Source: Panopea generosa (taxonomy: Eukaryota > Mollusca > Bivalvia > Adapedonta > Hiatellidae). From it: a stretch of DNA of 64,000 nucleotides. The stretch is from assembly GCA_029582155.1 (NCBI GenBank), contig CM055908.1, positions 20,127,406-20,191,405 on the forward strand, in the 5' to 3' direction. The notes under the pieces are model-generated. The model was not told the DNA's origin. It saw only the letters and a program-made list of their open reading frames with translations, and ran no database searches. The position numbers were made by a program, and so were the translations under genes. This document shows positions 36,465 to 56,859 of the stretch, one piece after another (the first letter of the stretch is position 1; every line of letters starts with the position of its first letter).

Positions 36465-39400
36465 GTGATTAGCAGTGGTGTTCCAATGATTTATAATAAT
36501 AAAAAAAAGTTTTAGCTTTAAAAGCAATTGTTGGATTCCATTTATTTAATCAATATTTGAAATCATGTTTTTATTATAAATCTAAGGCTTTTTTTATTTA
36601 TTTCAAATCTAACAATATGAAACTGAGAGTACAAAAAAAAAGTTGTTTAATATTTCCAGTCTCACAATGTCAAGCTGACTGTATCTAGTCAAAACTTATT
36701 TATTTTGCTTCAATTGTGAAATTAGTTCTCACAACTTAGGCAAATCACGCTCAAAGTCTTCCTGGTTAGAACCAGTACTTTAGCATATGCAGGAAAGTAC
36801 AGTATCTACATAATATAACATAAAGTTGAGTGTACCCGATTATCAATAGCAATTTTATCTCCGTTTCTCAACACTAGTGGTGACTGAAAGAAATGCCCCC
36901 AATCTTATAGCAATGATGAGTTAGTGTGATACTGATACCTTATATACAAAAATCACAAATGGCATTTACTAATTTACTTTTAAGATCCTCCGTGGCTGAG
37001 TGACCCATTTAAATTTAGTCTCTGTCTCCAGATCTCCTCTCACTAACCATTTAGGTATTGAGTTGAGTATCAGGTTAATCTAAAAATTACATGAGAAACT
37101 TAGAATATTTGTCTAATGTTCATTTAAACTGAATACTGTATTTATGATATATATTCATAAATGTGTTGAAAATGTATAATGTGTTCGAAATTAAGCATAC
37201 ATTGCTTTAGGGAATACAAGGTAGTAATTGCATATATTTGATAATAAAGGATGGAGAATTTGGTTTGAGCTTAAGGAGATCATGCACTGGAAGTAGCAAC
37301 AGTAGAAAGTTTGTTAATGATGCTGAGAAAGTGCTGTCCCAATTGGAAGCTGTACAGAGGATGGAAGATGACGATGAAATGCAGGTACTATTAATCTATC
37401 TATTGATTGTACAACACCCTCTCATGAGTATTATGTGCAGGCACAAAGTGCACAGATTAACGGGATTTGATACACAGAAATGACTGCTTTAAGTCCCCTC
37501 AAAAGGTTTTGCATGCTTTCACAGTACCTTGCCTGAATAAGGCACAGTGAGAATGTTTTTGAAAACCCCAGAAGAAACCCCACCGGGAATCAAACCATGG
37601 ACCTTGGGATCTTGGAGCAAGCATGCTAACCACCAGGCCACAGCAACTCTGTATTTTACAGGTTTAAAGGAAGGATTGCTTAATTCTTACATATTACATG
37701 AGAAATCTCCTTAAGAGTGCATTTTTAGCTTGCCTGGACAAAGTCAAAGGAGAGCTATTGCCATGACCCTGGCGTTGGGCGTTTAAGTTTAACATTTCTA
37801 TGCAACCACTCATTGGATGTGAATGAAACTTCGCATGTGTGTTCACCATCATCAACGGAACACACAGAGACAAGAACCATAACTCTGGATTGCATTTTGG
37901 CACAGTTTTGGCCCTTTTTGGACTTAGACACCCACGGGCGAGCTTTGTTGTCTTCTGACAACTCTTGTTTTTTTTGCAGCGTGAAGAGAGTTTGACCCAT
38001 GTACCCACCTAGTATACATATGTGGATATATGTACCGGTATATGGGATAATTATAATCATTTGTGAACAACCAGACCAGACTGGCGAGCGAGCCTTGCTA
38101 CAATACAAAACAAAGACACAAGACTATAGAACAAACCACCTCAATAGAAGTGGTTTCAATCATAGCTTATATGCAATGGCCTAATATGTATACATGTAAT
38201 ATGTCTGGACTAAAGGGATAATTTATGTATATGTACTGATCGCTTATATGAGTAGGATCCTGTTAAATTTTTTACATATATGAATGCTCCCTTTTTCAGG
38301 AGGTTATGCATAAATGTTGACCCCTGGTCAAAGTTGGGTCAAAATGAGTCGCATACTACACCAGGGTCAGGAGGCACCATATGATGATATTCCTTCTCAC
38401 TTCCATTATTTTTCATTGAATTGGATTTTGTTAAAACTGGGAAAATGTTCTGATCAAGAAAAACCTCTGATCAAAGGTGTATCAATGTTTAATTCCAAAA
38501 CCATGCTTTCAATGTCAAGGTAAAATGCTTCATAATTGTGTACACAGAAATGGCAAGCAGTTCATTTCTTGTGTGAATGATGACCTCTACTCTAAGGTGT
38601 GTCCCAATCTAGCTCTAAGGTCAATGTAAATTGTATGCATGTATTTGCATCTGAGTGGCCTACCGTAGGTGCTGTCTCAAGATCACCTATTTATATATAT
38701 CTATATACGTATATATACTATTTGTCTTAGGTTTTGTTACACTAATAAAGTGGAATACCATTATTATAAATCTATATTGTCTTGAAAAAACCAACAACTT
38801 TTTTTGAGAAAGTTAGTCAGTAACTTGGATAAGGACGACAGTTCTACTTGATTTATTTTGAGTTTATTTCTCTGCCAGTAAAACTGGGTATGCCATTTAT
38901 AACATGTTATGTGTTGAAAATGGCGATAAACCACATTAAAACAAAATTAAGAATGATTTATATAACTGGTAATCTGTACAGCTTGTTTGGTAAAGCAATG
39001 AAATCAGTATGAATTACTGGCACATGTACAATAAGGTGTTGTTTTTTATGATAGTCTGTAAAGGAAGGACAATTTCAAATTAACAGTATATTTAATATTT
39101 TTAAATGTTTTCTGTTTAAGGATAAAGAATGCAGTATAGACGAACAGAATGAAACTATTAAACACAAAGATAGCTTAAGTAGTGCTTCAAAATATCAACA
39201 AACACCAGGTCCAAGCAAACAGAGTGTTAGTAATATTGTTCAGAGAACTGGGGAAAAATCAACAACTCTGGCTTCTCATACTTACAGCCCAATTAAGTCA
39301 AAAGTGTCTTTAGTTTTTAATGAAATGTATAGTGAAAATGATGTTGAAGATGATGATGATATATTTAGTGTGTCACATGATTCTTCAGAGTTCATCAAGA

Positions 39401-42400
39401 CTATTACAACCAGAGAAAAACATGTGGATTTCTCACAATCTTCCCCTTATCAAGTTAAGAAATTGACAGAAATTTTAAAAGCACAATCAGACCAACAAAC
39501 AGTTGGTTTGGAGAGAGATAGATTAGAAAGCGGTAATTTTTCAGACCCATATGTTCCATGCAGAAATATTAAACTTGGAAGTTTGCAGCAAAAGAGCCAG
39601 TCATTAGACAATACAAAACTTGATCCAAATAAGTTTAACAGTGAAGATAGGCTTGTATGCAGAGACGAAGAAATTGATGAAAGTTCAAATATTGGAAACA
39701 AAACAGAATTTATATCAAATCAAAACACTGTAAAGCAATCTGTGTTCAACTTAGATACTGACATGATACCTAGAAGTACATCAAGACTATCTTGTCAAGA
39801 AATAACAGTAGTAATTAATAAGAACAAGGAAAATATTGATCCACCTGACATGAAAGTCATAGAAGGTGTGAACAAGAAACCAGATATCAGCAAAGGAAGT
39901 GAACAAGAAACAGATGACTTTGCAAATGGTGGCCAGGATTTATCTGAGGATATAAAACAAAAAGTGAGTAGCGAACAACTCAGGTAATGTAATATTTGAA
40001 CCAGGGTGAGGAAAATATGAAGTCAGTCCAGAATTCAAACCTGGAACCTCTCTTACTTACATGGTTCACTGACTGGTTATACATCAATAAAGCACTGGGC
40101 TAGCTAGGAGCTTTGCAGTGTTACCGTTTATCCAACAACTATATTCATCTTTTCATTGGTAAAGTCGTATCCTTTTTTTCAAATTTTAATTTTTTTTCTT
40201 TTTGTTGATTGTTGGGGTAATGTGTTTTGTTATTAAGTAATGTGTTACATTTACTGAAATGAATATATATCTATCAATATAAGCAGGCAACAGAAGAACT
40301 GCAGCCAGAAGATTTTGTATATGGAAGGGAGGCCTACAGTCACTATACTTTATTTACCTCGGTAGGTTAAGACAAGGTATTTGTATTGTTTTAATTTAAA
40401 CTTGATTTCATTAACTATTCACTATTGCAATCATCCTGTCAAATAAAAATGGAAAAAATAAGAAAGGTTAAATTACCAAATTATAATATTTGTTTATTTT
40501 ATTTATTTATTTTTTTTAAAGTCACCAAAAATAAGAATATGGTTACCCATTTAATCACTCTGTTATAGGTCTGTGGGGATCAGGGTCGGCCACCCCCCAA
40601 CAAACCTTACAAATAATTGACATGTTTGTTTTTATATATATTTTGCAAGTATGTATAACAAGGAGCAAAAAAAAACAAAAAAAAACAATGCATATTGTAA
40701 AAAGCTATATAAATGGGGATTTTTTTTTTAATATGTCATTACAATTATATAGAAGATCTGCACCAGAATGATTGATTTTAACATTATTTTTATCATGATG
40801 TAGTTCTAAATTAACCAAAAGACAAAAGTAGCAAGAAGAATATGATATAATTATATTAAGAATAAAATGATCAAGACAAACAAAAATTATTACAAAGATC
40901 TTTTCAATTCATACATTTGGCTTTTTACCATGTAAAAATAATGAAATTTTCCCCCCCAAAAACCCAGCCTTAAATATCACATATAAAAGAATTATTATAC
41001 CAAGTTTTATTTCTACCAGGTATTCCAAATGGTTTAACAATACAAATTATATAATAAAAAAATTACAGTACAAAAAATAGCAATAAAAAAAAAAAGGCAA
41101 ACTATTTCTTTTGGAGATGTGACTTCGCTTTTTCAAGTGAGAATAAAAAAAAAAGGAAAAGAGAAACAACAGGGAACACATCTGGCAGTTTGTTTGAACA
41201 TATTTCATTTAATTGATGATTGGTGTAGGCAGCATTTATGAGTAACAGTTGACCATGTTAATTTATTTTTTTTGTTAAAAAAAAAAACAAACAAGCAAAA
41301 GGAATTCAATTAAGTAACAATATTACTACAATAAAGATTCATATGCATTCCATATTTTTTCAAATTTTACTAATGTTTTTTTTTTGCATTTGATTTTTCA
41401 ATTTTTATTATTTTTTAAATTATTTCATTTTGACTTTGCAGGATGGTTAAGCAAAATATACAAGGATATGTTCTAAAACATATTGTGAGAAGATATCATT
41501 TTCGCATACCGTTCATCCAAGCAGTCCTCATCAGTATTATTGTTATCTTTATTTTCATAGTTATGATTATATTCATCACCAGTATCACAATCATCATCAT
41601 AACCATCATCATTACCATCATTTCACAGATTGAGAGGAAAACGAAAAAGAGAGAGCTACTGTGTCAGCTTGCTGACAAGATGTCTGAGTATGACTGGAAG
41701 ATACAAGCTATAGATGATCTTATCGCACTAGCTAAAGGTTCATATTTCACAAGATAAATAGCACTATAAAGCTATATATATTTCCAATTTGACATGTGCA
41801 TATTTTTATATACTTTAAAACACTTTAAATTTTGCATGAAATTCATTTCACAATTTGCTCTTAATCGTCCTATTTTATTTATTTCTGAAATGTTGAATTC
41901 GCAATGTTCAAAAAGTCAGACCGTTGGAAATGCATTTTTTATTTGGATATTATAAACATTTGGACAGTGAACATGATAGTAAGTTTAGCAAAATTTTTGA
42001 ATTTGCGAAGGTTGAAAATTTCGAATGATAGCGAAAATAAAGTTGTTGCTAATTATAAGTGTTTTACAGTATCAAAAGACCATATTGAAAAATATTTTGT
42101 AGGTTTGAATAGACTAACCTAGGTATAAATAAGTTAAAGATCAGAATTTGACTGTTTAGGTATTGAATGTGATGAATCAACCAGAGAATACCAATATAGA
42201 TATTCAGTGGTTGATATTACATCAAATGCAGTACCTAAGTAGGTGACACTTGTTTTATTTTGTAAAAAACTAACATTGAAATAATGGGTGAAAAATAAAA
42301 ATGATTTTCAATAAAAAATTTCACTTCATCTTTTATTGACACGTGAACAGATATTGTTCCTATTTACAAAATGTTTCAAAATTATATTGTTAATTAATAT

Positions 42401-45400
42401 CAGGTAATTGAAATCTTAATATATATATTGGTGTTTTTGAGGCAATCACATTTGTAATGTTCCTTGATCTGCTATTATATATTAGTACAGAACACAATTG
42501 TGGCACAACATGTATTAAATTGCTAATGGTGACGCTCGGTTAAACTATGATTGGTTCCCCTCATGTGAAACATAATCATTGGCCCCACATAATGAACCCA
42601 GTTACAGGAAATACATGAATATGCATAATGTGCAGTGCAGTTAAAAATTTAAAAAGTGATATCAGATGGGGAAAACGCTATACCAGTGCATATGATATAG
42701 TAGTTGAAGTTGAATTTATCGGTTTGAGCCGATAGAATTTGATTTATTTATAGATTATCTAAAACTGTATATTAAATTTTTTAGATTATGCATCAGTTTA
42801 TTGTAAAGACACTTAAATATTGAATTTATATATATCTAAATTTTGTTTTTACCTCATGTACAAATGTTATTGTATTTTGTGAGCCCATGTGGTTCTGGCT
42901 AAGAATAGAGTCACTTGATCTCTGCAAAGGGGTAGGAATCCTCCGAATGGGTGTCATGTTCATTTTATCATTTTTTGTCATGTTCACTATTGTGGTTAAA
43001 TTATCAACCCCTGTGTGGTTCCAGGGAGCCATGAGTGATGGCAAGAATAGGATAACTGTGGCTTATGCATGTCGTAAAAAACGACAAATTCTGCAGTTCA
43101 GAAACTCTGCAGTACTGCAGGTATCAAGGTTCTAGTTTCATTCTGCATATTCATTTGTTGATGTATTTTTTTTTAATCTGTATGTAAATTTGTTGTTTCT
43201 GTACATGTAGAGTGAACCTGGAATCTTCCTTCCTATTGGTGTAGAATAACCTATAATGTGTTGGTATGCCGTAAAACCCTAATCATTCATTATTGTATTT
43301 TGTAAACTTTTATTATGACCTGAATACCATTTTATTGAATTAAACAGAAGCCAGCATTAGCTACTTATGCTATAATATTTCTTGCAATTTAAGTTACCTA
43401 TTGAATGGTTTCAAGTCATTGCATTAGGATTGTACAATAATGGAAATATATGGCAGACTTGTACCACAGATTCTTAATAAAAATATGCTATAAAATACCA
43501 TTTTTAAAATAATTCTAAGAGATACACTAATTGTTGTGCTGATGATCGTTTCAAAGAAATTGATAGTCATAATATGAATTATAACTTGGGTCTTATTGGT
43601 TGCAAAGCTTTTCTTCTATTTGCCATCTTGAATGAGACAATCGTGTCGCCCTCTTACAACAGGGAGACTTATTGTTTTTGTGCTTTCCATCTGTTAGTCC
43701 ATCAGTCTGTCTGTCATAAAATCTTATTTTATTTACTCTACACTTGTGGACATATTAAGCTGAAACTTGCTGGGAAAGACCAATATGAGGTCTGGTTGCA
43801 CATATCTGTTTTTCATTCCAGTTTGATAATTTTTTACTGACAATCAGTTACAACCTTTTGCATTTTCGTATTGAAAAATTTTGTCAGGATATATTTATGA
43901 AAACCTTCTGATCCAAGATTTGTCATTGTTTCCCCAGAGAAAATAAATACATATAAGGCTATCTTTAAAAAATATTAGTTTGTAGTGCTCCGACCCAATA
44001 TTTTTCATGTAGGTAGGTAGGTAGCTAATTATTTTTTTTGCCAGATTTTATTTTTGCAGTCATTGTAAAGAAAAATGGACAGAAAACCTGAAGAAAATAA
44101 ATTCAATATTTTGAAAATCAATAAAAAAGTTTTGGGTACATGTAGTTTCAAATTTGAGTGAGTAGGTAGGAATAGGATAGTATTTCTGAATAGGATAAAT
44201 GCTTTGGCATGGATAAATTAACAACAAAGATATTATATTAACAGATTACTACTTCAACCCAGACTCCAAGAAAGCTGCAAACTGGAAAGACTTGAAGAGG
44301 AAGGTCAGACAAAGTAGTAGTCGTAAACTAGGACGGACAGAAGTCAGAAGAAAACTGGGAAGTCTTCCTGAATACAGACCTTTCTTCACTTACTTCATTA
44401 TCATTGTAGGTATCACTGTGACCAAAGTCACACAGTTTGGTACTTAAAACTGGTTTTATATTTTGAAGAGACATACAACAATGTTAAACTTTAATTTACT
44501 CCTATTCATACATCAAATATATTTTTCAGAAGATATAAATCTCCAAGTATTACTTTCTGAAACTCCATAAGAAACAAATTATTAACTTTTTTATGAAACT
44601 AATGAATTCATGCTAGTCTTGAAAATTTGAATAAAAATTCCTAAAAAAACAAACAAATTCTTTTCTTTCATACTGATAAATTCTGAAGAAAAGAAAACGT
44701 GACAATTTTCTATCATAAAATTATGACAGTGCTTTTCGCAAAATGTGCTTTTCATCAATTTACAAAAATTGTACCGCCTTCCAAAACAGAAACAAAATAA
44801 AGGGTCTGCAAACATACAGAATAGTAGGCCATCCAAAAAGCATAATAACCCTTATTTTAACTTTTGATGGCAATTTTTCAGTACCATAACAACATTCCCT
44901 AAGATGTATAGCATCATGTGAAGGTGGATACCACTCATGAAATTGCGTTTTAAGGTCACAGTTGAGGTCAAAGGTCAATCAGGTGCAAAAATTAACAAAA
45001 CGGCAGTGTATATAAATTATTGTTACTAATATTATAATTATGTTGCTTTTACATTTTTTTCTGTAATGCCGTGTTGTTAATAGTCTAATGAAACCATGTA
45101 GGGGACGATGAAGCATCTATTTAAAGGAAAATGAAGCATACATCTATCGTTCTGTTCGTACTTATACTAGCTGAAAGTTCAATAAGTGCATTTAAATTTT
45201 GGATATTTAAAATATTTTTTGTTTAATTACAAATATACAATTTGTTATTAACCTTAAATGTTATACATATCTTTGAAAATACAATACTAAAACTAACTCT
45301 TATTAAAAAAAGTTGCGTGTAAGCTTGAATGTCCGTATGATCTACACAAGGTGATAATACCCTGATGCACATTTTTATTTTATCAATTATTTTCAAATTG

Positions 45401-48400
45401 AAATAAGATTCCAGTAGAAATACTAATTACGAATATAAATGTACCTTAGATTAAAAGTAAATGTAAAAGAAAGACAGATTATGTTATGATGTAATCAAAT
45501 TACCTTAATTGTACTTAAAATTAGTAAAATTTGTCTCCCCATATATAAAGATGCCATACAAAGTACTGAGATTCGTAGAATATTACTTGTTACCTCCAGT
45601 ATAGATGTTCTTGACAGAATTGACAGTTTCAATCATGACACTTGACAAGATTGAAACACTTTATGGCATAAAATGTGTTATAGTGCATTCACTTCTGAAA
45701 ACAAAATTTATAAACTCAATGTAAAACTGGCACCTCTTAGATCTTCTACGAGAAGTGTTGAAAGATGTTCCTGTCCGTTCAACAACTAGAGCAAAGTACT
45801 ACCCACTGGTTGGAGTTGTATTTTATTTCAGTCGGAAGATGTAAAACAGTTTAATTGTGTAAGAATGATCTTTTTTAAGAATATGTATTGCGAGTGTAAA
45901 TGACCTTATTGCGTTCGAAGTAAAATACAATCTTAAATGTCTGTCTAAGTTTAAAAGACAAATTGTGAAGTATGAGCATACTATCGAAGATGATACAGTA
46001 ATAACAGAATTAAGATTTTAACTGGAATAGGGTTTAGCTCCGGGACATGTATATGTTATTGGTGGTGATTGGAGTAGCCATTTTAACAGGAAACAGGTAT
46101 TTAATCAGTCCACCCAAGCAAATATTTTTTACAGCTTTGTATTTTCCAAATATCTTTCTAAAGCATACCAAAAGCTACATTCTGAGGCTTATGCGTCTGA
46201 TTTCGGGTCATATACTGATTCATCTGATACTGATTCAAGTATTCTATATGAAAGTATACTTATAAAAGAGAGTTTTTACTGTTGCTCAACAAATACGAGG
46301 TGAGATGGGCATGATTCCCTTTGGGAAGTAAAACACATTGATTATGTAGACAAGGTAATTCCTGGAAGGTTCTTTCTCTATCTCGCTTGCTATTTGGTCA
46401 TATGTCGATTATTCTAGACAGCAATGCTGAAGTCATAAACTATGCGGATAACTGCAAAGTTTATACAATAGCAGAAGCTATAGAATTTCGTGTATATAAC
46501 GGCATACAATATCTCAAGAAAAATGTTGGCCTTGGACATGCACTTTATAAGGCAACTCGTTCTGAAATGATAGTCAGTCTTTCTCATGCTGTCAACAACA
46601 CTGTTGAAATAAATATGATCCACAGAGTTGACAATTTAGTTGCAAATAGTATTAAGAGGCATATCAAAAATAGATATGATCTGTTTGCGTTCATGAAAAG
46701 AAATCATACATTTGCCCATTACTTCTGTAATAATGTTGATGTCCTAGAAGCAACGTTAGATGAAAGAAACATACATGTATGTCACAGCACAATATGGTGG
46801 TCAGTTGCTAGATAATATCATGTGGATACTAATACCAGACTTGCTTCAACTGATACTATGAAAACTATCCAGTTAGATAAAGTAGCGTTACCTCATGACG
46901 GTAGGCCATATCCAATACATGGACCTTATAACATAAATGGAAGTAACTGGTACACAAACAGTAACGAAACACGTTGAACAGCATATATTCAGAATATTTT
47001 AATGGATTTTAGCAAGACAGTCAAAATGGTGTGCAAACAATTTGAAGAGCTTACAATGAATTAAACCTTCCAGATAATCTGTCAATGACCACTATGGGAT
47101 TGCATCCAATATTACAAGCCTATGTAGATAATTTGAACACATTTGCAATTGTTATCAATATATTTGAAGCATTTTCAAGTCATATTGGTCAAGCAACACC
47201 GTTATCACAGCAGATCAGGCACTCTTTTATGAAATGAAATAATTTGTATGAGGCAATCAAGACCAATTCAAGAATGCCATGTTCAGGCTAGGGGTTTCCA
47301 TTGATGTTTCAATTTACTGAAGGCAACTTGACAGTATGTATAATAGGCTGGTTTAGATGATGTGTCACCAAACACAACCGAAAACATTTTAGAGCGAAAG
47401 GCATATTGCAGAGCAGTGAAGCCTATAAAGCATTAGGGAGACTGCATTGATGTATCTTCATATCGTGGTGGGCACATGTAACTATTGCTGCTAAGCTTAA
47501 TTTTTATGATAGTACCGTAAACATGTTGCTGATGCATTCTCTATAAAAATGAAAAGGGTTCCAAGAAGATATATACAAAGCAATTGAACAGACAAATTAG
47601 ACAAAACGGTTGAGCAGTTTAATTGCTAATTACAGTGAGTTTGGTGAATTGTGTACGGATGTGTTTTGGATGACGTGCATAAGCATGGTTGGAATTTTGT
47701 TAGACTTCATCAGAGCGGAAAAAGAGAGCACCTGGGAACTCCATCTAGCGGCGTTTGCTGTTATATAACCATGGTTGACAGTCTAGAACCATTAGAACTA
47801 TGCTCAGTGTTGACCTATTTACTAGATGATATGAAGTGTTTCGAAAAGACAGCCCCAGATGTGTATCCGGAATTTAAAGATGGATTTTTTACAGTCAAAA
47901 GAAGCAATAATTACTAAACACTGACCAAGCAACAAGATTGATGAACAAGATTTTTATAATGAATCATGGTAAAATAGAAATCACACAAAATGACCAAGCC
48001 AGAAACAAAATCTGTGTCACTTTGGCAACTCAATCGGATGTGTCGGAGAAGTACCTACAAGGAGAAAGTGATGCAGAGGAAAACTACACCTACACCAGTT
48101 ATGATTATCTGCCTTCATGAATTGATCTTGTTCAAGTTTTGATCAAATAGATGGATACTTTTGACATTGTCTGAGTATAGTCCTTTGAAGAAAAAAAACA
48201 CAAACCATTTGCCTTGATGTTTGAACAAGCAGAAAATTCAGGTTGTTAAAGATGACAGAAAAATACTTCAGAGTCTTTTAAACATTTAAAAGTTTAAACA
48301 TATTTTTGTCTGCTGCAAATGCTAGCAGAAATGTAGAAATTGGTTCTGTACTGCAACACAAGTTGTCACTGGTACCTCTGCCACTTGCTAGGGTTGTATG

Positions 48401-51400
48401 CTCTAGAAACTCTACCACAAAGACGGAAATTTTGAATGTCTTGGAAAGTGATTTTAACTTGATGACCTTCCCAATTCTTCACTGCAATGGTACATAATCA
48501 TTGGTGGTCAAGTTCTGATTCATGCTTTTGGAATGCATGCTATCAGAATAGTTGCTTTCTGCATCCTAATAAATGTCCTTATAATGTAGCAACTTCTAAA
48601 CTAGTATACTTGTGTATATTAAAATGACTACAACTCATTAGTTTTCTTTGTTGGGCAATATTAGAGAATATTAACTATTTCTATATCGCTATTAATTTTG
48701 TCCAACTTCTATTGTGGTCTCATAAAGCTATTTCCTTCAGTTTTAATATACTTAATTTATCATAAGATTTGTTTATGTATTCAATTCATTTAATAAAATG
48801 TTTTTATGTACTGGAATCTTGCATTTCACAAAAAATTCAAATTCATAAATTTTGCACACTTTTGACCTTTGACCTCAATCAGACCTCAGTTTGACAACAC
48901 AATTTTTAACATATTTTATTCATATTCCTAGTAGTGGCTTACAACAAACATATTCCTATAGTTTTCAGTTCAATAAATAAATAAATAATTATTTTAACAA
49001 GACAGTGATCTACATTCTATATATCAATAACTGCACCCAGTTGACCTTTGACCTAATTTTGAGATTATGAGATGATTTCATGAGTGGCATCCACCCTCAC
49101 AGGTTTGTATACATACCAAGGAAGACATTAAGTATGGATGCCAAATTCTACTCAAATTTGCCATCAAAAGTTTTTTCTCTGTGTTTGGATGGCCTACTAG
49201 AAGTATTGTAATTTTATGTTTAATTTATTGTGTAGATATGTAATTTTTCTGAATAAAAAGAGCGAAATAAAAATTTATCAAAATTGCTGTGTCCCTTTAG
49301 AGAAATCTACTATGGTAGTATTGTAACAACAGTATGGTAATATGATGAAGTTTTATAAGTAAACAAGTCTAATTAATGTTTTATCATTATTCTTCAAATG
49401 CTCAAGTTATTTCTTATTTCCCAAACATTTAGGTATTAAGTTTCATGGTACAATACTAAAAGACTTGAAAACATTTTTGCACAAATTTCTTGTCCAGTTA
49501 TAAAATGAAAGAAGATTACTTTAAGGTCAATACGTACCCTCAGGAATAAATTCCCAAAACAAAACATTGAATGTTAATGTTCAGTAAGCTTTAGATTGAT
49601 TTCAGCTTTTCTTGGTCAAATGTCATGGTAACAGAGTATAACTAAATCAATTTCAGGATTATTCAATCAAAAGTCAAGGTCATTGAAAAGTGTTGTAAAC
49701 TCAATATAGTATTTTGAATTTTATATATTTAACAATGCAACAAATTTCAATATAAATTGCAGCCAATTAAAAGTAACTTTGAATTAATTTTTCAATCATG
49801 ATCAAGAATATTGTTGATATAAACAAGTAATTAGTTTTGACTCAATAATTGCAATTTGTATGAACAAGGATTACATTGCAGTTAAAATTGTCTGTTTATC
49901 TAGTAATTCTATAATATATGAAACGTGAATGTTTTTGAGCGAGTTATAGAGAAACTTAGAGAATTTATAATAGAGGAGCAAACAGTGCAGTCCTATGCAG
50001 GGTGATTCATTTTCACATTGATTCGAACTGTTACATGTTTAACATTGTATCTATAGGTATATTACTTAAATTGCATGTATTGTGTTTGACTATATGGTTA
50101 GTGCAGTTGAGAAATCACCAGATCTGAAGAGAAAGTGTTGGCATTTTAAACTCAATGTGTCAATAATTGGACAGCTTTAACATCTGCGAATCAGAATTCT
50201 TGGTTTGCATTCCTGGAAGTGAACAAGTTTCAGATAAAGTGATACTCTTGAAAATGTCAAGTTTACCTGAAAATGTTGAAATTTATACTGAAGGAAAATA
50301 AATATAATCATATTATTATCCTTGACCATGACTTCATTGTAGCTTTACGGTGGTAAATTCAACTTCATATGCTATGTTTGTGCAAATTTATGCAATACTT
50401 GTTTTAGAAACCAAATATATATTTCAGTTTCAAAAATCCCCTTTCACAATATTGGTGTTCAACAGGTAGATAAATGGTTCAGTGACCAGTGCAATTGGTT
50501 TGCGTTATGACTTTTTTCCTATATTACCGAATTAACATCTTCATCCACAAAATCACAAGTGAGTTCTATAAGGCTTATTCTGTTATATGTGGAAATTTAA
50601 AATATATTATTTAATTGACAGGCACAGTTGATATCATTTGGTGTGATGTGTGGGTTAGGGGGATTGACTTACATTGGTCTAGAACCTCAGTTGATATTGG
50701 AAACGGATGTCCAAACATTTCTAGGAATTGAGACTGTACACAAATGGATGCCACCAAATGTTTGGATTGGACCTGATCAGGCGTATATAGTAGGTGAGCT
50801 CAATTATCTTACTCAATCAATGATATGTTTGTTAATTTATCTGTTTGTCCATCACAATTACCAGGTCAACTCTTTCATATTTCCTATCACCAGTAATAAG
50901 AATATATAGCTAGAACCACATAACAGACATTTGTGTTAAATGTCTGCAGTGTTGTTGAGGCACAGGTAAGACTCTTTATATCTATTCTCAGTCAGATCTT
51001 ATTGTCAAGATATCTTGTATATATTTCAGTTGATTAAGATGAAACTTTGTGGAAAGGGATTGGTTTTGTATTTCGTTGAAGTTCTCAAGTCATACTTAGA
51101 ATTTGAAATTTAAGTTCTAAAATGGCTAATAAACTGTCATTTTGTTCATATTGGAGAAAAAAATAAGACCAGGAATTTAGATGTGTAAATGAAATTATGA
51201 GAATTCTTATTTTAACATGGATACAGTATTCATTTAGCTATATTTTAATTCAGATACCAAACAAAATTTATGATCAGGTTTCACACCTTCTCTCTCGGAA
51301 AGCTGGAATTGGCTTATTTTCTTGTTGAGATTCCTTCATATATTTTTAAAATCAGGTGACAGGATTTAATATTATTTTTTTAATTTTCATTCAGAAGTTG

Positions 51401-54400
51401 TTTATGCAATATTCATTACCAGTAACAATGTTTAGAAATTGTCTGCTTGTTACGTGGTTATTTAGCTCATTCCATCTATACTTCCTATACTATTGATAAT
51501 AATTATATACTCATGTTTATTATTGATAATTATATACTTTTTATTTATTGATAATAATTATAAACTCATTTGAATTATTGATATTAATTATCAACTGATT
51601 TTAATTATTGATACTAACTATCAACTCATTTTAATTATCATTTCATTTTAATTATTAATACTAACTATCAACTCATTTTAACTATCAACTCATTTTAACT
51701 ATCAACTCATTTTAATCATTGATACTAACTATCGACTCACTTTAACTATGAACCCATTTTAATTATTGTTACTAACTATCAACTCATTTTAACTATAAAC
51801 TCATTTTAACTATTGATACTAACTTTCAACTCATTTTAACTATGAACTCATTTTAATTATTGATACTAACTATCGACTGATTTTAACTATGAACTCATTT
51901 TAATTATTGTTACTAAATATCAACTCATTTTAACTATCAACTCATTTTAATTATTGATACTAACTTTCAACTCATTTTAACTGTCAACTCATTTTAACTA
52001 ACAACTTATTTTAATTATCAACTCATTTAAATTTTTGATACTATCAACTCATTTTAACTATTGATACTAACTTTCAACTCATTTTAACTATCAACTCATT
52101 TTAACTATCAATTCATTTTAATAATCAACTCATTTTAATTATTGATACTAACTATCAACTCATTTTAATTGTTGATACTAACTAAACTCATTTAAATTAT
52201 TGATACTAACTATCAACTCATTTGAATTGTTGATTCTAACTTAAAACTCATTTTAATTATTGATACTCAACTATCAACTCATTTTATGTATTGATATTTT
52301 GTGTAAACCAGGTGTTGGAGGTGTGTTTGCTCCGTGTATGAGGAAAGACATAGAGATACAGCTTATGTACTCAAGAAAGAACTACATCAAACGTGAAGCT
52401 CTGGGCTGTTGTGAGATAGCCAGCAGAAACACTGCAGGAACAACTACTGAGTCCGAGTGTATTCAGCTGACGGGATGTGAGTATCATAGAAGTGTGAAAC
52501 TTCAGTGACATGGTGCTAAAAAAAGTTCTTCAATGCTCTCTGTCTCCATTATTTGTTATCTGCCACTAGGTTGTTGAATATCATCTTTCACCTCTGAGGT
52601 TGTGAGTTGATCTCAATTTGGTCCAAAAGTGAACAAATTTGCCCAGTATAACTTTGTTTAAAGATGTTGTTTTTTTCACATTCATACACTGGTAAAAAAA
52701 ATTAATTGGCTATTTTATTATTTTGAATATAAAATATTATTGTATGTTTTGAATTGATGTTTCATACAAATCAATTTCACCAACAATCAATACACTTTGT
52801 ACTTCAAAGTCTGCACTTCCGGTCACATAACAAATTTTGGTGTGAAATCACATAATTCTCCCATGCTTCACGAGGTGTGTTTGTGTTTTTATAATTATTT
52901 ATAGCTTTTATCCAAAACAAAAACTTACAAAAACACTAAAGAAAAAATGCATTGGATGACAACAGCAGAGCGTATATGGACTGTACACATGATTATTGCT
53001 TATACTTTGATTCAACATGTAATGAGCGCTGTCGCTGTTGTCGCATGGAATGTGTGCTCAAACAGGGGTATTGATTTTTGTTTATTCTGAAATTACTGGT
53101 ATCTGTGAAATTCAATAAAATAAACTTTCTTGAAATTCATAAAATACTTTGTTTTATTTGTGTCAATAGAACATACATAAATTTATATTTTCATTTTTTA
53201 GGGACAAATAAAAAGGAAAATAACAAGTGATCCATTAACAATTTTGACCAGTCTGAGGTGTACTATAGTACCAGTATATAAATCTGAGATTGTGCTGCAC
53301 CTTTACATTTTGTCGCCATATTGATACAGCACATATGTTGAAAATGATGTTCAAAATAACAAAATATAAGTGAAGTTGAAGATGTAGAAATCCAGACTCA
53401 CTATAATAGCATAAATTCAATCACATTCAAACAACTCATTGTTCAGATATGATGAAAATGATGCATAGTTTGTACTTGTTAAACGTTAAATTTTTATTTC
53501 AGCAATAGGATATTGGAGAGCTGGTGTGACATGTGTAGAGAGATCAAAGGGACAGATGAGAGTTAGGCACAATTTAAAGCCTTGCTGTTTTGGACTTCGA
53601 GGGCAATGTGAACTTCTCTCACACAAACACTGTGTATTCCTTAAGGGAGTTTTCCACCAGTTTGGTCATGAACATTGTAGTCAGGTATTGTTTTATTCTT
53701 TAACACTTTCTAGGCGTTGAATACGTCTGGAACACCATATCTGCTCTGTTTAATTTTAAACTTCGACTTCAAGTTGAATATTATGACAATAGTTTAATGG
53801 TGCATGTATTTTACAAGTCACTTTACTTCTTGTTAAATTTGAAGTATTATTTAAATACTGCTTTTCATCATTTTGATATACCGGTAATCATAGGCTATTT
53901 TGTATTTTGCCATTGTTCCTCTTTGGTAGTCCACTTTACTCTATGTTATCATTACCCAAGCTTGAGAAAATGAAACTTCAAAGAACAACCAGCAGTTTTG
54001 GTTTTTCATTTGACTCAAATTTCATAAATCCTATATCTACATGATGAAAATATGAAATTAGAATACTCCTGCTTGTATGTCAGCAGTTCTTCAATATCAT
54101 GTCTATTTTGAAAATGGGCATTACTCTTGTTAATAGTTGAAAAGCATCATAGTTCACATATTCATACTCGCATGACAAAATAAATGTCAAATATTTCTTT
54201 GACGGTATGATAGATAAAACACTATTTAAAAGAAACATCTATGTGTCTTTTTTTAAGAATTTTTACTCGTGTTTTAAAATCTATCTTCTCTAATTTAAAA
54301 AAAAATGTAAATCCATTCTTATATTTTTATATAAAGTAAATGGTGATAAAAATATGTTCATATGGTTAAAAGTTCATTGGCGTAAATTTTGATTTGATGT

Positions 54401-56859
54401 GTGAACATGATAATATTCAATTTCAACATTGTTGTGTAGCTTTTAGTATTTTTTTCACTTTTTTAGCTCACCCAAGCCAAAGGCTTTTTTTCTGATGTCT
54501 ATCCATCCGTCTGTCAACAATTAATTTTAATGACTTCTCTGAAACAGCTGGACAGATTTTCTTCAAATTTGGTGAAGCATTTTTACATGAAGCTCTTTCA
54601 AGTTTGTTTCAGTCCCTGGGGTCAAATTTGGGGCCACCTCTAGGATTTACCTTTTTTTTCTTCAAAATTTCACAAATTTTCTCACAAACCAATCATCCAC
54701 ATTTGTTCAGAGTTCATATAAATGACCCCTGCACATTGTGGTAAACACCTCTTCTCAAAAAAAAAAATTAGGTTTAATTTCACAATATTTACCAAATAAT
54801 TGTGTTTAATTGAATAGGTAAACTGCCTCAGTGATGTCTGTAAGCTGGGCTATCTAGGTCCCTCCATGGATCAACCTTGGTTACCAGAGAACCCTAACCA
54901 GTGGTGGAGACTTCCACTCTCCCTCCTGTATCACCAAGGTATCATACACACTGTCTTGGTGACTGTGGCTCAGTGGTTACTACTCACCCAGATAGAGCGC
55001 ACCGCCGGCTGGCTCAGAATGCTGATTATATACCTGGTGTCTGGCACTGGAGCTCTCATGGTAAGTAGAATATTTTTGTAAAACCTGTGTTTGCAGTCAC
55101 AGTACTCACTGCTATCTGTAAGCAGTCATATATCCTATACTCTTATTAATATATTATCATATTTTTTTGTTTCCTGTCTTACACGATTTAATATACAAGT
55201 TAGCGATGTAGACTAAACTGCCCTTCTTGCAACGGTAGCTTATTCAAACAATGGTAAGGGGGCATTAATGTTAACCCAATCTCTCCATTCGTTTGTCTGT
55301 CAAACTGGTTTTTAATAAAGAACTTCTTACAAAGGTCTATGTATCTAATCAATATTTGGTGTGTAGTTAGCTAATTATAAAATTCAGATCAAGTTTGTCA
55401 ACATCAGTTAGTTATGGCCCCAGTTTCAACTTACTTTTAGGTAAAATTTACTAACATGTTGTGAGGACATCTTGTCCTATGGACACATTTCTTGCTATAT
55501 TTAAAGCAACAAATACATTTTGGTTTTCAAAGCATTGCCAAAATTTAGCCTTAAAACAGTTGAACAAACCCCCTCCAGCATTCGCATTTTCAAAGGTTGG
55601 TTACAATCCAATAAGAATGAAGTGCTAGAGTATTTACAAGGCAAATTATAGCATTTTCCCAGCTATTCAAGGAGCATACATACCCTGGTCAATATGGCCA
55701 AACAGTTGACTCATCCTAGCTCTCATGACAACATTTTGATAAAGTTTGATCAAAATCAAATTGAACACAAGGCATAATAAGGCATTTTCAGAGATTCATG
55801 ACTATTACTCCAAGGTAACCTACAACCAAGCTGCCTATCTGAGATCAGACAACCCACCTGGTTATCGAAATTGTCCAAGATCTGAAAACACACCTGGTTA
55901 TCGAACTTGTCCAAGATCTGAAAACACACCTGGTTATCAAACTTGTCCAAGATCTGAAAAAAAAACACACCTGGTAATCAAACTTGTCCAAGATCTGAAA
56001 ACAGACCTGGTTATTGAACTAGTCCAAGATCTGAAAAAAAAACACACCTGGTTATCGAACTTGTCCAAGATCTGACAACTCACCTGGTTATCAGACTTGT
56101 CTGAGATCTGAAAACCTACGTGATTATCAAAGTTATCCAAGATCGAGTGGCTATATACACTCTGAAGAAACTGTTCACAACTAAGAGAGATAGAGATTAA
56201 AATAAGTTGTCAGCATTGCTACAAATTCAATAACATTATTATATACCTCATTTTATTCTATTAAATAATTTCCCTTTTATATTTACATACTATACCAGTA
56301 ATACAAACATGTACTTTGAAAAGACCTACAATATATTACTTGACTGGCACTAAATGTAGTTGATACTTGTCTGTTTTAAAACTGTAAACAATTCTCAACA
56401 TGTATATTTCAGATGTCAGCGATCTTTTCACCATATCAGAGTCACATTGGTGGTGTGGGGGCCATATTTGGTATGGTTGGTGTAATCTTTGTTGAGCTGG
56501 TACAGTTCTGGACCCTCATTGACAGACCATACATTGAACTGGCAAAAATCCTAGCTGCCGTTGCTGTGTTTATCTTTTGCGGAACATTACCTTATTTAGA
56601 CATTTTTGGTATTCTGGCTGGTTTTGTACTTGGCACTCTGACGGGGGTTATTTTGTTACCGTACATCACATTTCAGAAATGGCACACAAAAGTCAGAGTT
56701 ATTCTTATAGCTGTAGCATTTCCATTACTGATCGTTGCTCTGTTTCTGTTATTTACCATTTTCAGTAATGTTCAGAGCCTGGATAATTGCAAAGTGTGTA
56801 AACTGATGAACTGTATCCCTTACACAGAGAACATGTGTAAAACTGAACTGTGGCAATAG
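36329..56859 (+). CDS. iRhom: iRhom (inactive rhomboid, RHBDF1/2-like), 11 exons, 5' end missing
   Basis: iRhoms are ER/Golgi multi-pass rhomboid pseudoproteases; in other animals they traffic ADAM17/TACE and regulate EGF-family ligands. Eleven phase-compatible exons give about 901 residues to the stop. Numbering from the first visible residue: a cytosolic N-terminus (1-490) with an FFGV..QQW motif near 22-36 as in vertebrate iRhoms, and a long acidic, low-complexity exon (104-384). Next come 'EYRPFFTYF' and TM1 (about 493-517), a Cys-rich lumenal iRhom-homology domain (518-690) with 'APCMRKD', 'GYWRAGVTC', 'CCFG..G.C' and 'HCS', then the rhomboid core ('SLLYHQGIIHT', 'IERTAGW'). The C-terminus 'CKVCKLMNCIPYTENMC' is the iRhom tail. 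The GxSG serine is Val768 in GGVG, and the TM6 histidine position is Ile820. Family assignment is secure; function of this divergent copy is inferred. Confidence 0.92.
37211..37384 (+). CDS. iRhom: iRhom exon, cytosolic region
   Basis: 174 nt, phase 0 both sides. Encodes 'SLRRSCTGSSNSRKFVNDAE' and 'VQRMEDDDEMQ'. Open from acceptor to donor; similarity is weak, as expected for this region. Confidence 0.7.
37500..37645 (-). mobile_element. tRNA-derived SINE head
   Basis: The reverse strand shows 'gtggcctggtggttagcatg' (box A-like) and 'tttgattcccggtggg' (box B-like). Confidence 0.6.
37722..37968 (-). mobile_element. Tandem-core element, short copy with one core unit
   Basis: Reverse-strand copy running from 'acaagagttgtcagaagaca' at the right edge to 'caggcaagctaaaaatgcac' at the left. 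Only one core unit is present, against three in the copies at 1.1 and 61.2 kb, so core copy number varies between insertions. Confidence 0.75.
39121..39963 (+). CDS. iRhom: iRhom large cytosolic exon
   Basis: 843 nt, fully open, acceptor TGTTTAAG and consensus donor GTGAGT, phase 0. Encodes 281 residues rich in Ser, Asp, Glu, Lys and Asn, with an acidic run 'DVEDDDDIFS' and 'SPIKSK'-type motifs. Probably disordered and phosphorylated. No domain recognised. Confidence 0.8.
39964..41628. other. iRhom introns around the 75-nt exon
   Basis: Very AT-rich with A and T homopolymer runs, and an ATC/ATT-rich low-complexity tract at 41520-41625. Nothing else supported. Confidence 0.5.
40287..40361 (+). 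CDS. iRhom: iRhom small exon
   Basis: 75 nt, phase 0. Encodes 'ATEELQPEDFVYGREAYSHY' and 'TLFTS'. Supported by open frame, AG/GT borders and phase; family match weak. Confidence 0.65.
41629..41737 (+). CDS. iRhom: iRhom exon before the juxtamembrane segment
   Basis: 109 nt after acceptor TTTCACAG. Encodes 'IERKTKKRELLCQLADKMSE' and 'YDWKIQAIDDLIALAK', leaving phase 1 for the next exon. The frame is also open upstream to 41443, but that part reads as low-complexity Ile/Thr and is out of phase with the preceding exon. Confidence 0.75.
41738..44244. other. iRhom intron before TM1 exon
   Basis: Contains the retroposon at 42881-43289 and an old dispersed repeat near 43620-43850 ('gcaaagcttttcttctattt'). 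Otherwise no feature seen. Confidence 0.5.
42881..43289 (+). mobile_element. Short non-LTR retroposon with 14-bp TSD
   Basis: Starts 'gagcccatgtggttctggct' and ends 'ccctaatcattcat'. It is flanked by perfect 'ttattgtattttgt' (42867-42880 and 43290-43303). Same family as 21835-22526. No clear box A/B pair, so the origin of the 5' end is unknown. Confidence 0.85.
44245..44405 (+). CDS. iRhom: iRhom juxtamembrane exon and start of TM1
   Basis: 161 nt. Encodes 'DYYFNPDSKKAANWKDLKRK', 'LGRTEVRRKLGSLPEYRPFF' and 'TYFIII'. RPFFTY is the conserved entry into TM1. I chose donor ATT|GTAGGT because it gives phase 0 into the next exon; GTATCA four bases later would not. Confidence 0.9.
44818..44985 (-). 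repeat. Dispersed repeat, inverted partner of 49030-49200
   Basis: 'gtaggccatccaaa', 'cttttgatggcaatttt' and 'aggtggataccactcatgaa' recur in reverse complement at 49030-49200, with 'ttgacctttgacct' at the edge. Origin unknown. Confidence 0.65.
45590..48500 (+). pseudogene. Decayed copy of a repetitive marine-invertebrate gene family
   Basis: Broken frames in order encode 'NDLIAFEVKYNLKCLSKFKR', 'VGLGHALYKATRSEMIVSLS', 'NNVDVLEATLDERNI' followed by His-rich 'HVCHSTI', 'DVFWMTCISMVG' and 'LSLVPLPLA'. I recall the same series in long, mostly intronless uncharacterised proteins (HFAADN.D..E.T.DG..TFHAT) that are abundant in molluscs and cnidarians and look mobile-element-borne. Multiple stops and frameshifts make this a pseudogene. 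The enzyme class is unknown to me. Confidence 0.6.
49030..49200 (+). repeat. Dispersed repeat, inverted partner of 44818-44985
   Basis: Reads 'ttgacctttgacctaatttt', then 'gagtggcatccaccctcaca' and 'gatggcctactag', matching the reverse complement of the left partner. Confidence 0.65.
50622..50793 (+). CDS. iRhom: iRhom exon, rest of TM1 and lumenal domain
   Basis: 172 nt. Encodes 'AQLISFGVMCGLGGLTYIGL' and 'WMPPNVWIGPDQAYIV'; the N/F-W-x-GP motif is typical of the iRhom lumenal loop. Leaves phase 1. Confidence 0.92.
50794..51479. other. iRhom intron, left part
   Basis: No feature seen before the tandem array. Confidence 0.5.
51480..52285. repeat. AT-rich minisatellite with repeated TACTAAC
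   Basis: Irregular units of 'ctatcaactcattttaa' and 'ttattgatactaa', about 15-50 bp. By eye the exact heptamer TACTAAC occurs about eleven times between 51611 and 52209. It ends about 25 bp before the acceptor of the 52312 exon. Confidence 0.9.
52312..52476 (+). CDS. iRhom: iRhom lumenal exon
   Basis: 165 nt, donor GTGAGT. Encodes 'VGGVFAPCMRKDIEIQLMYS' and 'ALGCCEIASRNTAG', matching the conserved 'FSPCMR.D' and 'CC' of iRhoms. The repeat array at 51480-52285 ends just upstream. Confidence 0.93.
53503..53684 (+). CDS. iRhom: iRhom Cys-rich lumenal exon
   Basis: 182 nt. Encodes 'IGYWRAGVTCVERSKGQMRV', 'KPCCFGLRGQCELLSHKHCV' and 'HEHCSQ', the 'RPCCIGTKG.CEI' block of iRhoms. The cysteines probably form lumenal disulfides. 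Confidence 0.94.
54455..54770. mobile_element. Dispersed element fragment (TTTTTTAGCTCACC...)
   Basis: Starts 'ttttttagctcacccaagcc' and continues 'ttcttcaaatttggtgaagc', a sequence style I associate with abundant molluscan interspersed repeats. The other end is not defined. Confidence 0.45.
54818..55060 (+). CDS. iRhom: iRhom exon, rhomboid core TM2-TM3
   Basis: 243 nt, donor GTAAGT. Encodes 'VNCLSDVCKLGYLGPSM', 'LPLSLLYHQGIIHTVLVTVA' and 'IERTAGWLRMLIIYLVSGTG'. The 'SLxLHxGxxH' and 'LEKLAGW' equivalents mark the rhomboid fold. Confidence 0.95.
55061..56412. other. iRhom last intron
   Basis: No exon or other feature seen apart from the 35-bp array at 55845-56145. Confidence 0.55.
55845..56145. 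repeat. 35-bp minisatellite (CCAAGATCTGAAAACACACC)
   Basis: About eight units of 'ccaagatctgaaaacacacc' plus 'tggttatcgaacttgt', some with an added A-run. It contains repeated BglII-type AGATCT palindromes. Confidence 0.92.
56413..56859 (+). CDS. iRhom: iRhom last exon (pseudo-active site, C-terminus)
   Basis: 447 nt including TAG at 56857-56859. Contains 'HIGGVGAIFGMVGVIFVELV' (GxSG serine replaced by Val, codon 56455-56457), 'LPYLDIFGILAGFVLG' (position of the TM6 histidine is Ile, codon 56611-56613), 'LLPYITF', a final TM helix, and 'CKVCKLMNCIPYTENMC'. Confidence 0.95.
   Translation: MSAIFSPYQSHIGGVGAIFGMVGVIFVELVQFWTLIDRPYIELAKILAAVAVFIFCGTLPYLDIFGILAGFVLGTLTGVILLPYITFQKWHTKVRVILIAVAFPLLIVALFLLFTIFSNVQSLDNCKVCKLMNCIPYTENMCKTELWQ

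What the first reader, a model, noticed from the sequence alone, without database searches (positions are those of the whole stretch)
56413..56859. iRhom that has lost the serine, the preceding proline and also the TM6 histidine equivalent
In vertebrate iRhoms the rhomboid GxSG motif is GPAG and the TM6 histidine is still present ('AHI.GF'). Here the motif is GGVG (Val at 56455-56457) and an ungapped alignment from 'LPYLD' to 'LPYITF' puts Ile (56611-56613) where the histidine stands. Both catalytic positions and the iRhom hallmark proline are gone, while the fold, the Cys-rich lumenal domain and the C-terminal tail are kept. This could be a divergent molluscan iRhom paralogue specialised for client binding.
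Basis: partly seen in the sequence, partly recalled or inferred. Interest (0 to 1): 0.75.

Follow-up and report, generated by a model that had tools for sequence, protein, structure and literature searches.

The report
Divergent second iRhom-like pseudoprotease gene
This animal genome carries, besides a normal iRhom, a much-changed second copy that has lost the protease's two catalytic residues and much of the part known to help switch on the enzyme ADAM17, so it probably does a different job.

Summary
The motif at 56449-56460 is GGVG, and the TM6 histidine position is Ile (56611-56613); the exon's two histidines lie outside TM5-TM6, so no gap placement restores one. The exon is the last of at least six (44245-56859) encoding 455 residues that match human iRhom1/2 (E 4e-63) far better than any protease rhomboid (0.0096). 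The same genome holds a canonical iRhom (C2, about 4.29-4.31 Mb) with GPAG and AHISGF, so the changes are not general to its iRhoms.

Further changes: three of four re-entry-loop positions and their TM2 partner Asp683, parts that human iRhoms need to activate ADAM17; 12 of 16 lumenal cysteines remain in my best splice model. Branch lengths put the duplication near the protostome-deuterostome split, with wide error. The intact frame speaks against a decaying copy.

Best reading: an old, fast-evolving iRhom-derived membrane adaptor, probably no longer an ordinary ADAM17 activator. It fails one published iRhom hallmark (the 'invariant' proline), so I call it iRhom-derived. Client, 5' exons, expression, species and distribution are unknown; no other animal genome could be searched.

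The parts
44245..44405 (+). exon with the basic juxtamembrane stretch, RPFFTY and the first part of TM1
   Evidence: tblastn with the canonical iRhom; with donor ATT|GTAGGT the join to the next exon is ungapped against the canonical protein; other donors in the same phase exist
50622..50793 (+). exon: rest of TM1 and start of the lumenal iRhom homology domain (..NVWIGP..)
52312..52476 (+). exon: lumenal domain (APCMRKD, GCC, TESEC), followed by donor GTGAGT
53503..53684 (+). exon: lumenal domain (KPCCFGLRGQC...HCSQ); its acceptor is in phase with the previous exon
54818..55060 (+). exon: end of lumenal domain, TM2 and TM3 (TM2 His pair YHQGIIH kept; human D683 position is Gln)
56413..56859 (+). 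last exon: TM4-TM7 and C-terminal tail, with stop codon
56449..56460 (+). GGVG, at the place of GxSG (protease) / GPAG (iRhom)
56611..56613 (+). Ile codon at the TM6 catalytic-histidine position

Best explanation
A protein-coding, long-retained and fast-evolving paralogue of the iRhom lineage, probably duplicated around or before the protostome-deuterostome split. By sequence it keeps the seven-helix rhomboid-like core and most of the Cys-rich lumenal domain. The two catalytic positions are Val and Ile, and the cytoplasmic re-entry relay by which human iRhoms switch on ADAM17 is largely changed. Most likely mechanism (inferred): a membrane adaptor or trafficking chaperone that recognises transmembrane helices of some client other than ADAM17, or that binds without activating. 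Shown: sequence identity, motif losses, canonical copy in the same genome, intact exons. Inferred: age, function, client, fold.
For: phmmer E 4.2e-63 to human iRhom1 against 0.0096 for the only non-iRhom hit. Canonical iRhom on C2 with GPAG/AHISGF, 51-54% identical to human iRhoms, against 31-33% for the window copy. The last exon occurs once in the genome plus the C2 paralogue at 35%. Six exons with AG/GT borders, 455 codons without a stop; coding G+C 44% against 29-34% in 4-kb steps. Neutral substitution to 0.1 per site keeps the frame stop-free in 0.05% of 2000 simulations. Of 200 residues invariant in the other three iRhoms 87 are kept, with Cys 12 of 16, Gly 16 of 24, Pro 10 of 14. At four re-entry positions (R369, Y371, G377 of iRhom1; R380 of iRhom2) the window has K, A, K, Q; iRhom2 D683 is Q, E734 is kept (residues from PMC13277793 and PMC12184519). 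From the point where the window copy joins, the canonical tip lies 0.45 and human tips 0.42 away; bootstrap ratio median 1.07, 95% 0.60-1.88, below 1 in 88 of 200; sites shared with human only 23, with canonical only 14, of 401.
Against: No expression data and no orthologue from another species, so constraint is inferred from the intact frame and the age. Age rests on four sequences and a clock; the window branch is long (1.5-1.6 per site). 5' exons and start codon not found. The middle of the lumenal domain is uncertain. A codon-usage score gave the six exons only weak support (1.0 to 9.1), and a non-exon stretch at 52949-53068 scored 8.5. The model of the last exon was poor (pLDDT 64); none of the 50 Foldseek rows shown of 66 was a rhomboid. 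Client-binding surfaces other than the re-entry loop were not tested, and the re-entry stretch aligns with low similarity.
Confidence: 0.6

Rival explanations
1. Lineage-specific duplicate (arisen within the animal's own phylum) that evolved fast after relaxed constraint, rather than an ancient class.
For: The window branch is 3-4 times longer than the others; the lower bootstrap bound puts the duplication at about 75% of the age of the protostome-deuterostome split (arithmetic mine); one intron (CSQ|V, phase 0) is shared with the canonical copy (by eye).
Against: The window copy is no closer to the canonical copy of its own genome than to human iRhoms (30.5% against 31.1-33.1%; 14 against 23 exclusive shared sites); only 1 of 5 window introns coincides with a canonical one, by eye.
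Confidence: 0.25
2. A recently silenced or decaying gene: motif residues lost through relaxed selection, no function.
For: Only 87 of 200 iRhom-invariant residues are kept; part of the lumenal domain seems missing; 5' end not found; no expression evidence; weak codon score.
Against: No frame break in 455 codons, AG/GT at all five introns; structural Cys/Gly/Pro preferentially kept; simulation.
Confidence: 0.1
3. The copy still works as an ordinary iRhom for ADAM17; Pro and His are dispensable vestiges.
For: iRhoms showed no proteolytic activity and act without it (PMC3149277, passages); re-entry-loop mutants still bind or mature ADAM17 (PMC12184519; PMC13277793).
Against: Changes coincide at the re-entry loop and its TM2 partner, needed for activation, while the canonical copy keeps most of these.
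Confidence: 0.15

Closest known systems
iRhom1 / iRhom2 (RHBDF1, RHBDF2)
   Same: Cys-rich domain between TM1 and TM2, rhomboid-like core, TM7, C-terminal Cys tail (iRhom2); 31-33% identity over TM1-TM7
   Different: GGVG instead of GPAG, Ile instead of TM6 His, re-entry loop and D683 changed, 12 instead of 16 lumenal Cys in the best model; cytoplasmic N-terminus not located
Canonical iRhom of the same genome (C2, 4.29-4.31 Mb)
   Same: same domain order from TM1 on; one intron in the same place and phase (by eye)
   Different: keeps GPAG, AHISGF, the R369, G377 and R380 equivalents (Tyr371 is Val), D683 and E734; 51-54% identical to human iRhoms
Protease-type rhomboids of this genome (L009; L011, L012, L014; the labels PARL-like and RHBDL-like are my reading)
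   Same: Pfam Rhomboid fold (PF01694)
   Different: keep GASG; L009 also HLAG in TM6

Membership tests
iRhom (features as in PMC3149277) | lacks the catalytic Ser and/or His of rhomboid proteases | tested here: met
   both lost: Val and Ile
iRhom (features as in PMC3149277) | invariant proline before the serine position (GPx) | tested here: not met
   Gly at that place, 56452-56454
iRhom (features as in PMC3149277) | iRhom homology domain between TM1 and TM2 | tested here: met
   aligns to human iRhom1/2 in two stretches but reduced: 12 of 16 Cys; its middle is uncertain
iRhom (features as in PMC3149277) | long N-terminal cytoplasmic domain | tested here: inconclusive
   tblastn of the canonical N-terminus found nothing convincing upstream; 5' exons unsolved
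iRhom | re-entry loop anchored by Arg residues and the TM2 Asp / TM4 Glu | tested here: not met
   four loop positions read K, A, K, Q (one conservative); D683 is Q; E734 kept; low-similarity stretch
iRhom | nearest relatives by sequence are iRhoms | tested here: met
   phmmer against the PDB: 4e-63 iRhom1 against 0.0096 GlpG homologue
iRhom | binds and regulates ADAM17 or EGF-like clients | not testable with these tools
   needs a cell assay
Rhomboid protease | GxSG serine and TM6 histidine | tested here: not met
   GGVG and Ile

The most novel reading that the evidence does not exclude
An ancient third class of iRhom-derived pseudoprotease, as old as or older than the split of protostomes and deuterostomes and not among the one fly and two mammalian iRhoms counted in the review read here (PMC6451368), in which the catalytic relics, the 'invariant' proline and the ADAM17-activation relay were discarded: a rhomboid-fold adaptor uncoupled from ADAM17 that serves a different client.
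Probability: 0.4. Interest if true: 0.65.

Novelty: new variant of a known kind. Interest (0 to 1): 0.48.

Why it matters
iRhoms are described as having an invariant GPx motif (PMC3149277), with one gene in the fly and two in mammals (PMC6451368). A retained paralogue without proline, serine, histidine and most of the re-entry relay would be a natural separation-of-function variant. It could show which iRhom parts serve client recognition and trafficking and which serve ADAM17 activation, and that the fold can be kept without either residue of the catalytic dyad.

Tried and rejected
Search for the same paralogue elsewhere: viral contigs and genome contigs with the window exon (54 and 167 pattern matches, none a relative) and with the canonical exon (3 and 150, none a relative). 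These collections hold viruses, bacteria and archaea, so this says nothing about distribution in animals.

Middle lumenal exon: 133 candidate extra exons between 52477 and 53503 were enumerated; none passed my pyrimidine-tract and donor filter. tblastn of the middle segments of iRhom1, iRhom2 and the canonical protein over 52300-53600 (one search showed only iRhom2 rows; repeated) gave only weak matches; the one worth naming is ITKWEICTD over VVAWNVCSN at 53037-53063 (E 0.21), whose frame could fit the splice phases with a poor acceptor. A second, Cys-rich frame at 52949-53068 scored 8.5 for codons, more than five of the six accepted exons, but fits the phases badly. Neither is excluded.

N-terminus: the 310-codon frame at 39055-39987 could not be tied to the gene; no Pfam match at E <= 1; its donor phase fits the 44245 exon only through an inner acceptor.

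Rooted tree with two protease-type fragments puts the window copy outside canonical plus human iRhoms with local support 0.76; long branches make this weak.

Structure: AlphaFold on the last exon alone had pLDDT 64; Foldseek gave 66 matches, none with E <= 0.001, and no rhomboid among the 50 shown. Not used.

Client count: three exons at or over the ADAM17 membrane-proximal-domain cut-off, but the best-scoring one belongs to a protein whose closest solved structure is ADAM10, so I drew no conclusion.

Literature: I judged listings by title and start of abstract; 3 listed of 4; 13: 20 of 81; 44: 15 of 177; 46: 15 of 14,692; 47: 9 of 9; 82: 12 of 771; 83: 1 of 1. None listed is about a molluscan or third iRhom; the unlisted ones were not seen, and only open-licence papers are held. 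The 2007 genome-wide rhomboid survey (PMC2045146) is not held. PMC7065720 (passages) reports predicted mouse Rhbdf1 splice forms with two extra residues at GPAG and the histidine changed to proline, so His loss as such has been noted among predicted iRhom variants.
Full report
What is there. The exon at 56413-56859 encodes MSAIFSPYQSHIGGVGAIFGM...GTLPYLDIFGILAGFVLG...NCIPYTENMCKTELWQ and ends at a stop. Against human iRhom1 and iRhom2 chains the alignment is ungapped across both motifs; GPAG stands over GGVG and AHI.GF over GILAGF. The exon has only two histidines, both outside TM5-TM6.

The gene. tblastn with the canonical iRhom of the same genome located further exons. With AG/GT borders in compatible phases I obtain six exons, 44245-44405, 50622-50793, 52312-52476, 53503-53684, 54818-55060 and 56413-56859, coding for 455 residues with no stop. 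A hydropathy scan gives seven membrane helices once two overlapping windows over TM2 are merged. phmmer against the PDB gives E 4.2e-63 for iRhom1; the only non-iRhom hit at E <= 0.01 is a GlpG homologue at 0.0096. Pfam calls only the Rhomboid domain.

The middle of the lumenal domain. The donor at 52477 (GTGAGT) and the acceptor before 53503 are in phase with each other, which gives a shortened lumenal domain. Of the 16 lumenal cysteine columns of human iRhom1/2 (eight disulfides, PMC12184519 and PMC13277793) the window keeps 12; the four lost are two inside the missing middle segment and one on either side of it (columns 152, 178, 185, 224). An even number is lost, as two disulfides would be; the pairing is my inference, not seen in a structure. 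None of 133 alternative inner exons passed a simple splice-quality filter, but two frames near 52949-53068 remain possible, and either would change the count.

The canonical partner. The first genome search with the exon found itself and one other place, C2:4293592-4293990, at 35% identity. That locus reads VGPAGSQFG...WIDNWAHISGF, and its exons over about 21 kb assemble to a protein matching iRhom2 at E 3.1e-158, including part of the cytoplasmic N-terminus. A search of the genome with the Pfam Rhomboid family gave 11 exon matches at E <= 0.1: two on C2 and two in the window are the iRhom-type ones; of the other seven, L009 (C14) and L011, L012, L014 (C12) show GASG, and in L013, L018 and L019 I did not read the motif. 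The scan goes exon by exon and is a lower bound; a repeat with the window's other exons did not complete. So the genome holds one canonical and one divergent iRhom-type gene, as far as these searches see.

How the copy differs where function is known. PMC3149277 (passages) names three distinctions of iRhoms: a long cytoplasmic N-terminus, the iRhom homology domain and an 'invariant proline'. PMC6451368 (passages and one section) repeats the conserved proline and counts one iRhom in Drosophila and two in mammals. The window copy lacks the proline. PMC12184519 (sections 5, 7, 8) and PMC13277793 (parts 1 and 2 of 3 of the Results) describe a cytoplasmic re-entry loop wedged between TM2 and TM5, anchored in iRhom2 by R367 and R380 to E734 and D683; in iRhom1 R369E, Y371G and G377W reduce stimulated shedding while maturation and surface transport of ADAM17 persist. 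In my alignment the window has Lys, Ala, Lys and Gln at the R369, Y371, G377 and R380 positions, Gln at D683, and keeps E734. The canonical copy keeps all of these except Tyr371 (Val). The K-E contact could persist; the R-D pair is gone on both sides. This is a low-similarity stretch and its alignment is less certain than that of the membrane helices.

Is it kept by selection? Of 200 positions invariant in the canonical and both human proteins, the window keeps 87, but Cys 12 of 16, Gly 16 of 24 and Pro 10 of 14, against Ala 0 of 8 and Ser 3 of 11 (the canonical sequence lacks part of the middle, so the 200 omit it; these 16 Cys are 15 lumenal ones and one in TM4). A substitution-only neutral simulation of the 455-codon frame leaves it stop-free in 1.3%, 0.05% and 0% of 2000 runs at 0.05, 0.1 and 0.2 substitutions per site, while the protein has diverged by about 1.5 replacements per site. 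Exon G+C is 44% against 29-34% around. A codon-usage score trained on 1325 codons supports the exons only weakly (1.0 to 9.1). Together this argues for long-lasting constraint; there is no expression or orthologue evidence.

Age. Identities: window-canonical 30.5%, window-iRhom1 33.1%, window-iRhom2 31.1%, canonical-iRhom1 54.3%. Of 401 ungapped columns, 14 are shared by window and canonical against both human proteins and 23 by window and both human proteins against canonical. On the unrooted tree the canonical tip lies 0.45 and the human tips on average 0.42 from the point where the window copy joins (maximum likelihood); the bootstrap median ratio is 1.07 (95% 0.60-1.88; below 1 in 88 of 200). 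With a clock, and if the animal is a protostome, the duplication is then about as old as the protostome-deuterostome split, at the least about three quarters of that age. Few taxa and one long branch make this suggestive only.

Mechanism. Catalysis by the rhomboid dyad is excluded by the loss of both residues. Rhomboid-like folds are viewed as recognisers of transmembrane helices (PMC6451368, section 3.1.1), and human iRhoms act as partners of ADAM17. I think the most likely function is a helix-recognising adaptor or trafficking chaperone for a client other than ADAM17, or ADAM17 binding without activation. This is inference; 0.6 covers the paralogue being functional, old and no ordinary ADAM17 activator.

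Limits. Species, expression, 5' exons and distribution remain unknown; the fold was not independently confirmed.

Noticed in passing
39055-39987 (+): Open frame of 310 codons, Ser/Asp-rich, with a GTGAGT donor near its end; could be a cytoplasmic N-terminal exon of this gene or another gene; no Pfam match at E <= 1.
   Followed up: partly
55842-56144 and 51491-52296: Minisatellites in two introns of the gene (36-base unit AGATCTGAAAACACACCTGGTTATCAAACTTGTCCA; AT-rich 17-, 47- and 88-base units), the second ending 15 bases before an exon.
   Followed up: no
52949-53068 (+): Cys-rich frame (YMDCTHDYC...CNERCRCCRMEC) inside the lumenal-domain intron with good codon score; another frame here reads AWNVCSN, weakly like canonical KWEICTD.
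   Followed up: partly
33766-34383 (-): Frame resembling the reverse transcriptase of Penelope-like retroelements ([13 protein letters not shown]); the resemblance is recalled, not tested.
   Followed up: no
19268-20104 (-): Long frames in several readings made of a short tandem repeat (SDFCMGYI...).
   Followed up: no
L023 (C4:87899000-87908900, - strand): Single-exon, 827-codon open frame of an ADAM10/17-like metalloprotease with a HEFGHSFGSPHD site; closest solved structure ADAM10; looks like an intronless copy.
   Followed up: partly
L011, L012, L014 (C12:64.94-65.23 Mb): Three near-identical protease-type rhomboid exons (NLVGASGGCYAI) within 0.3 Mb, apparently a young tandem expansion.
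   Followed up: no
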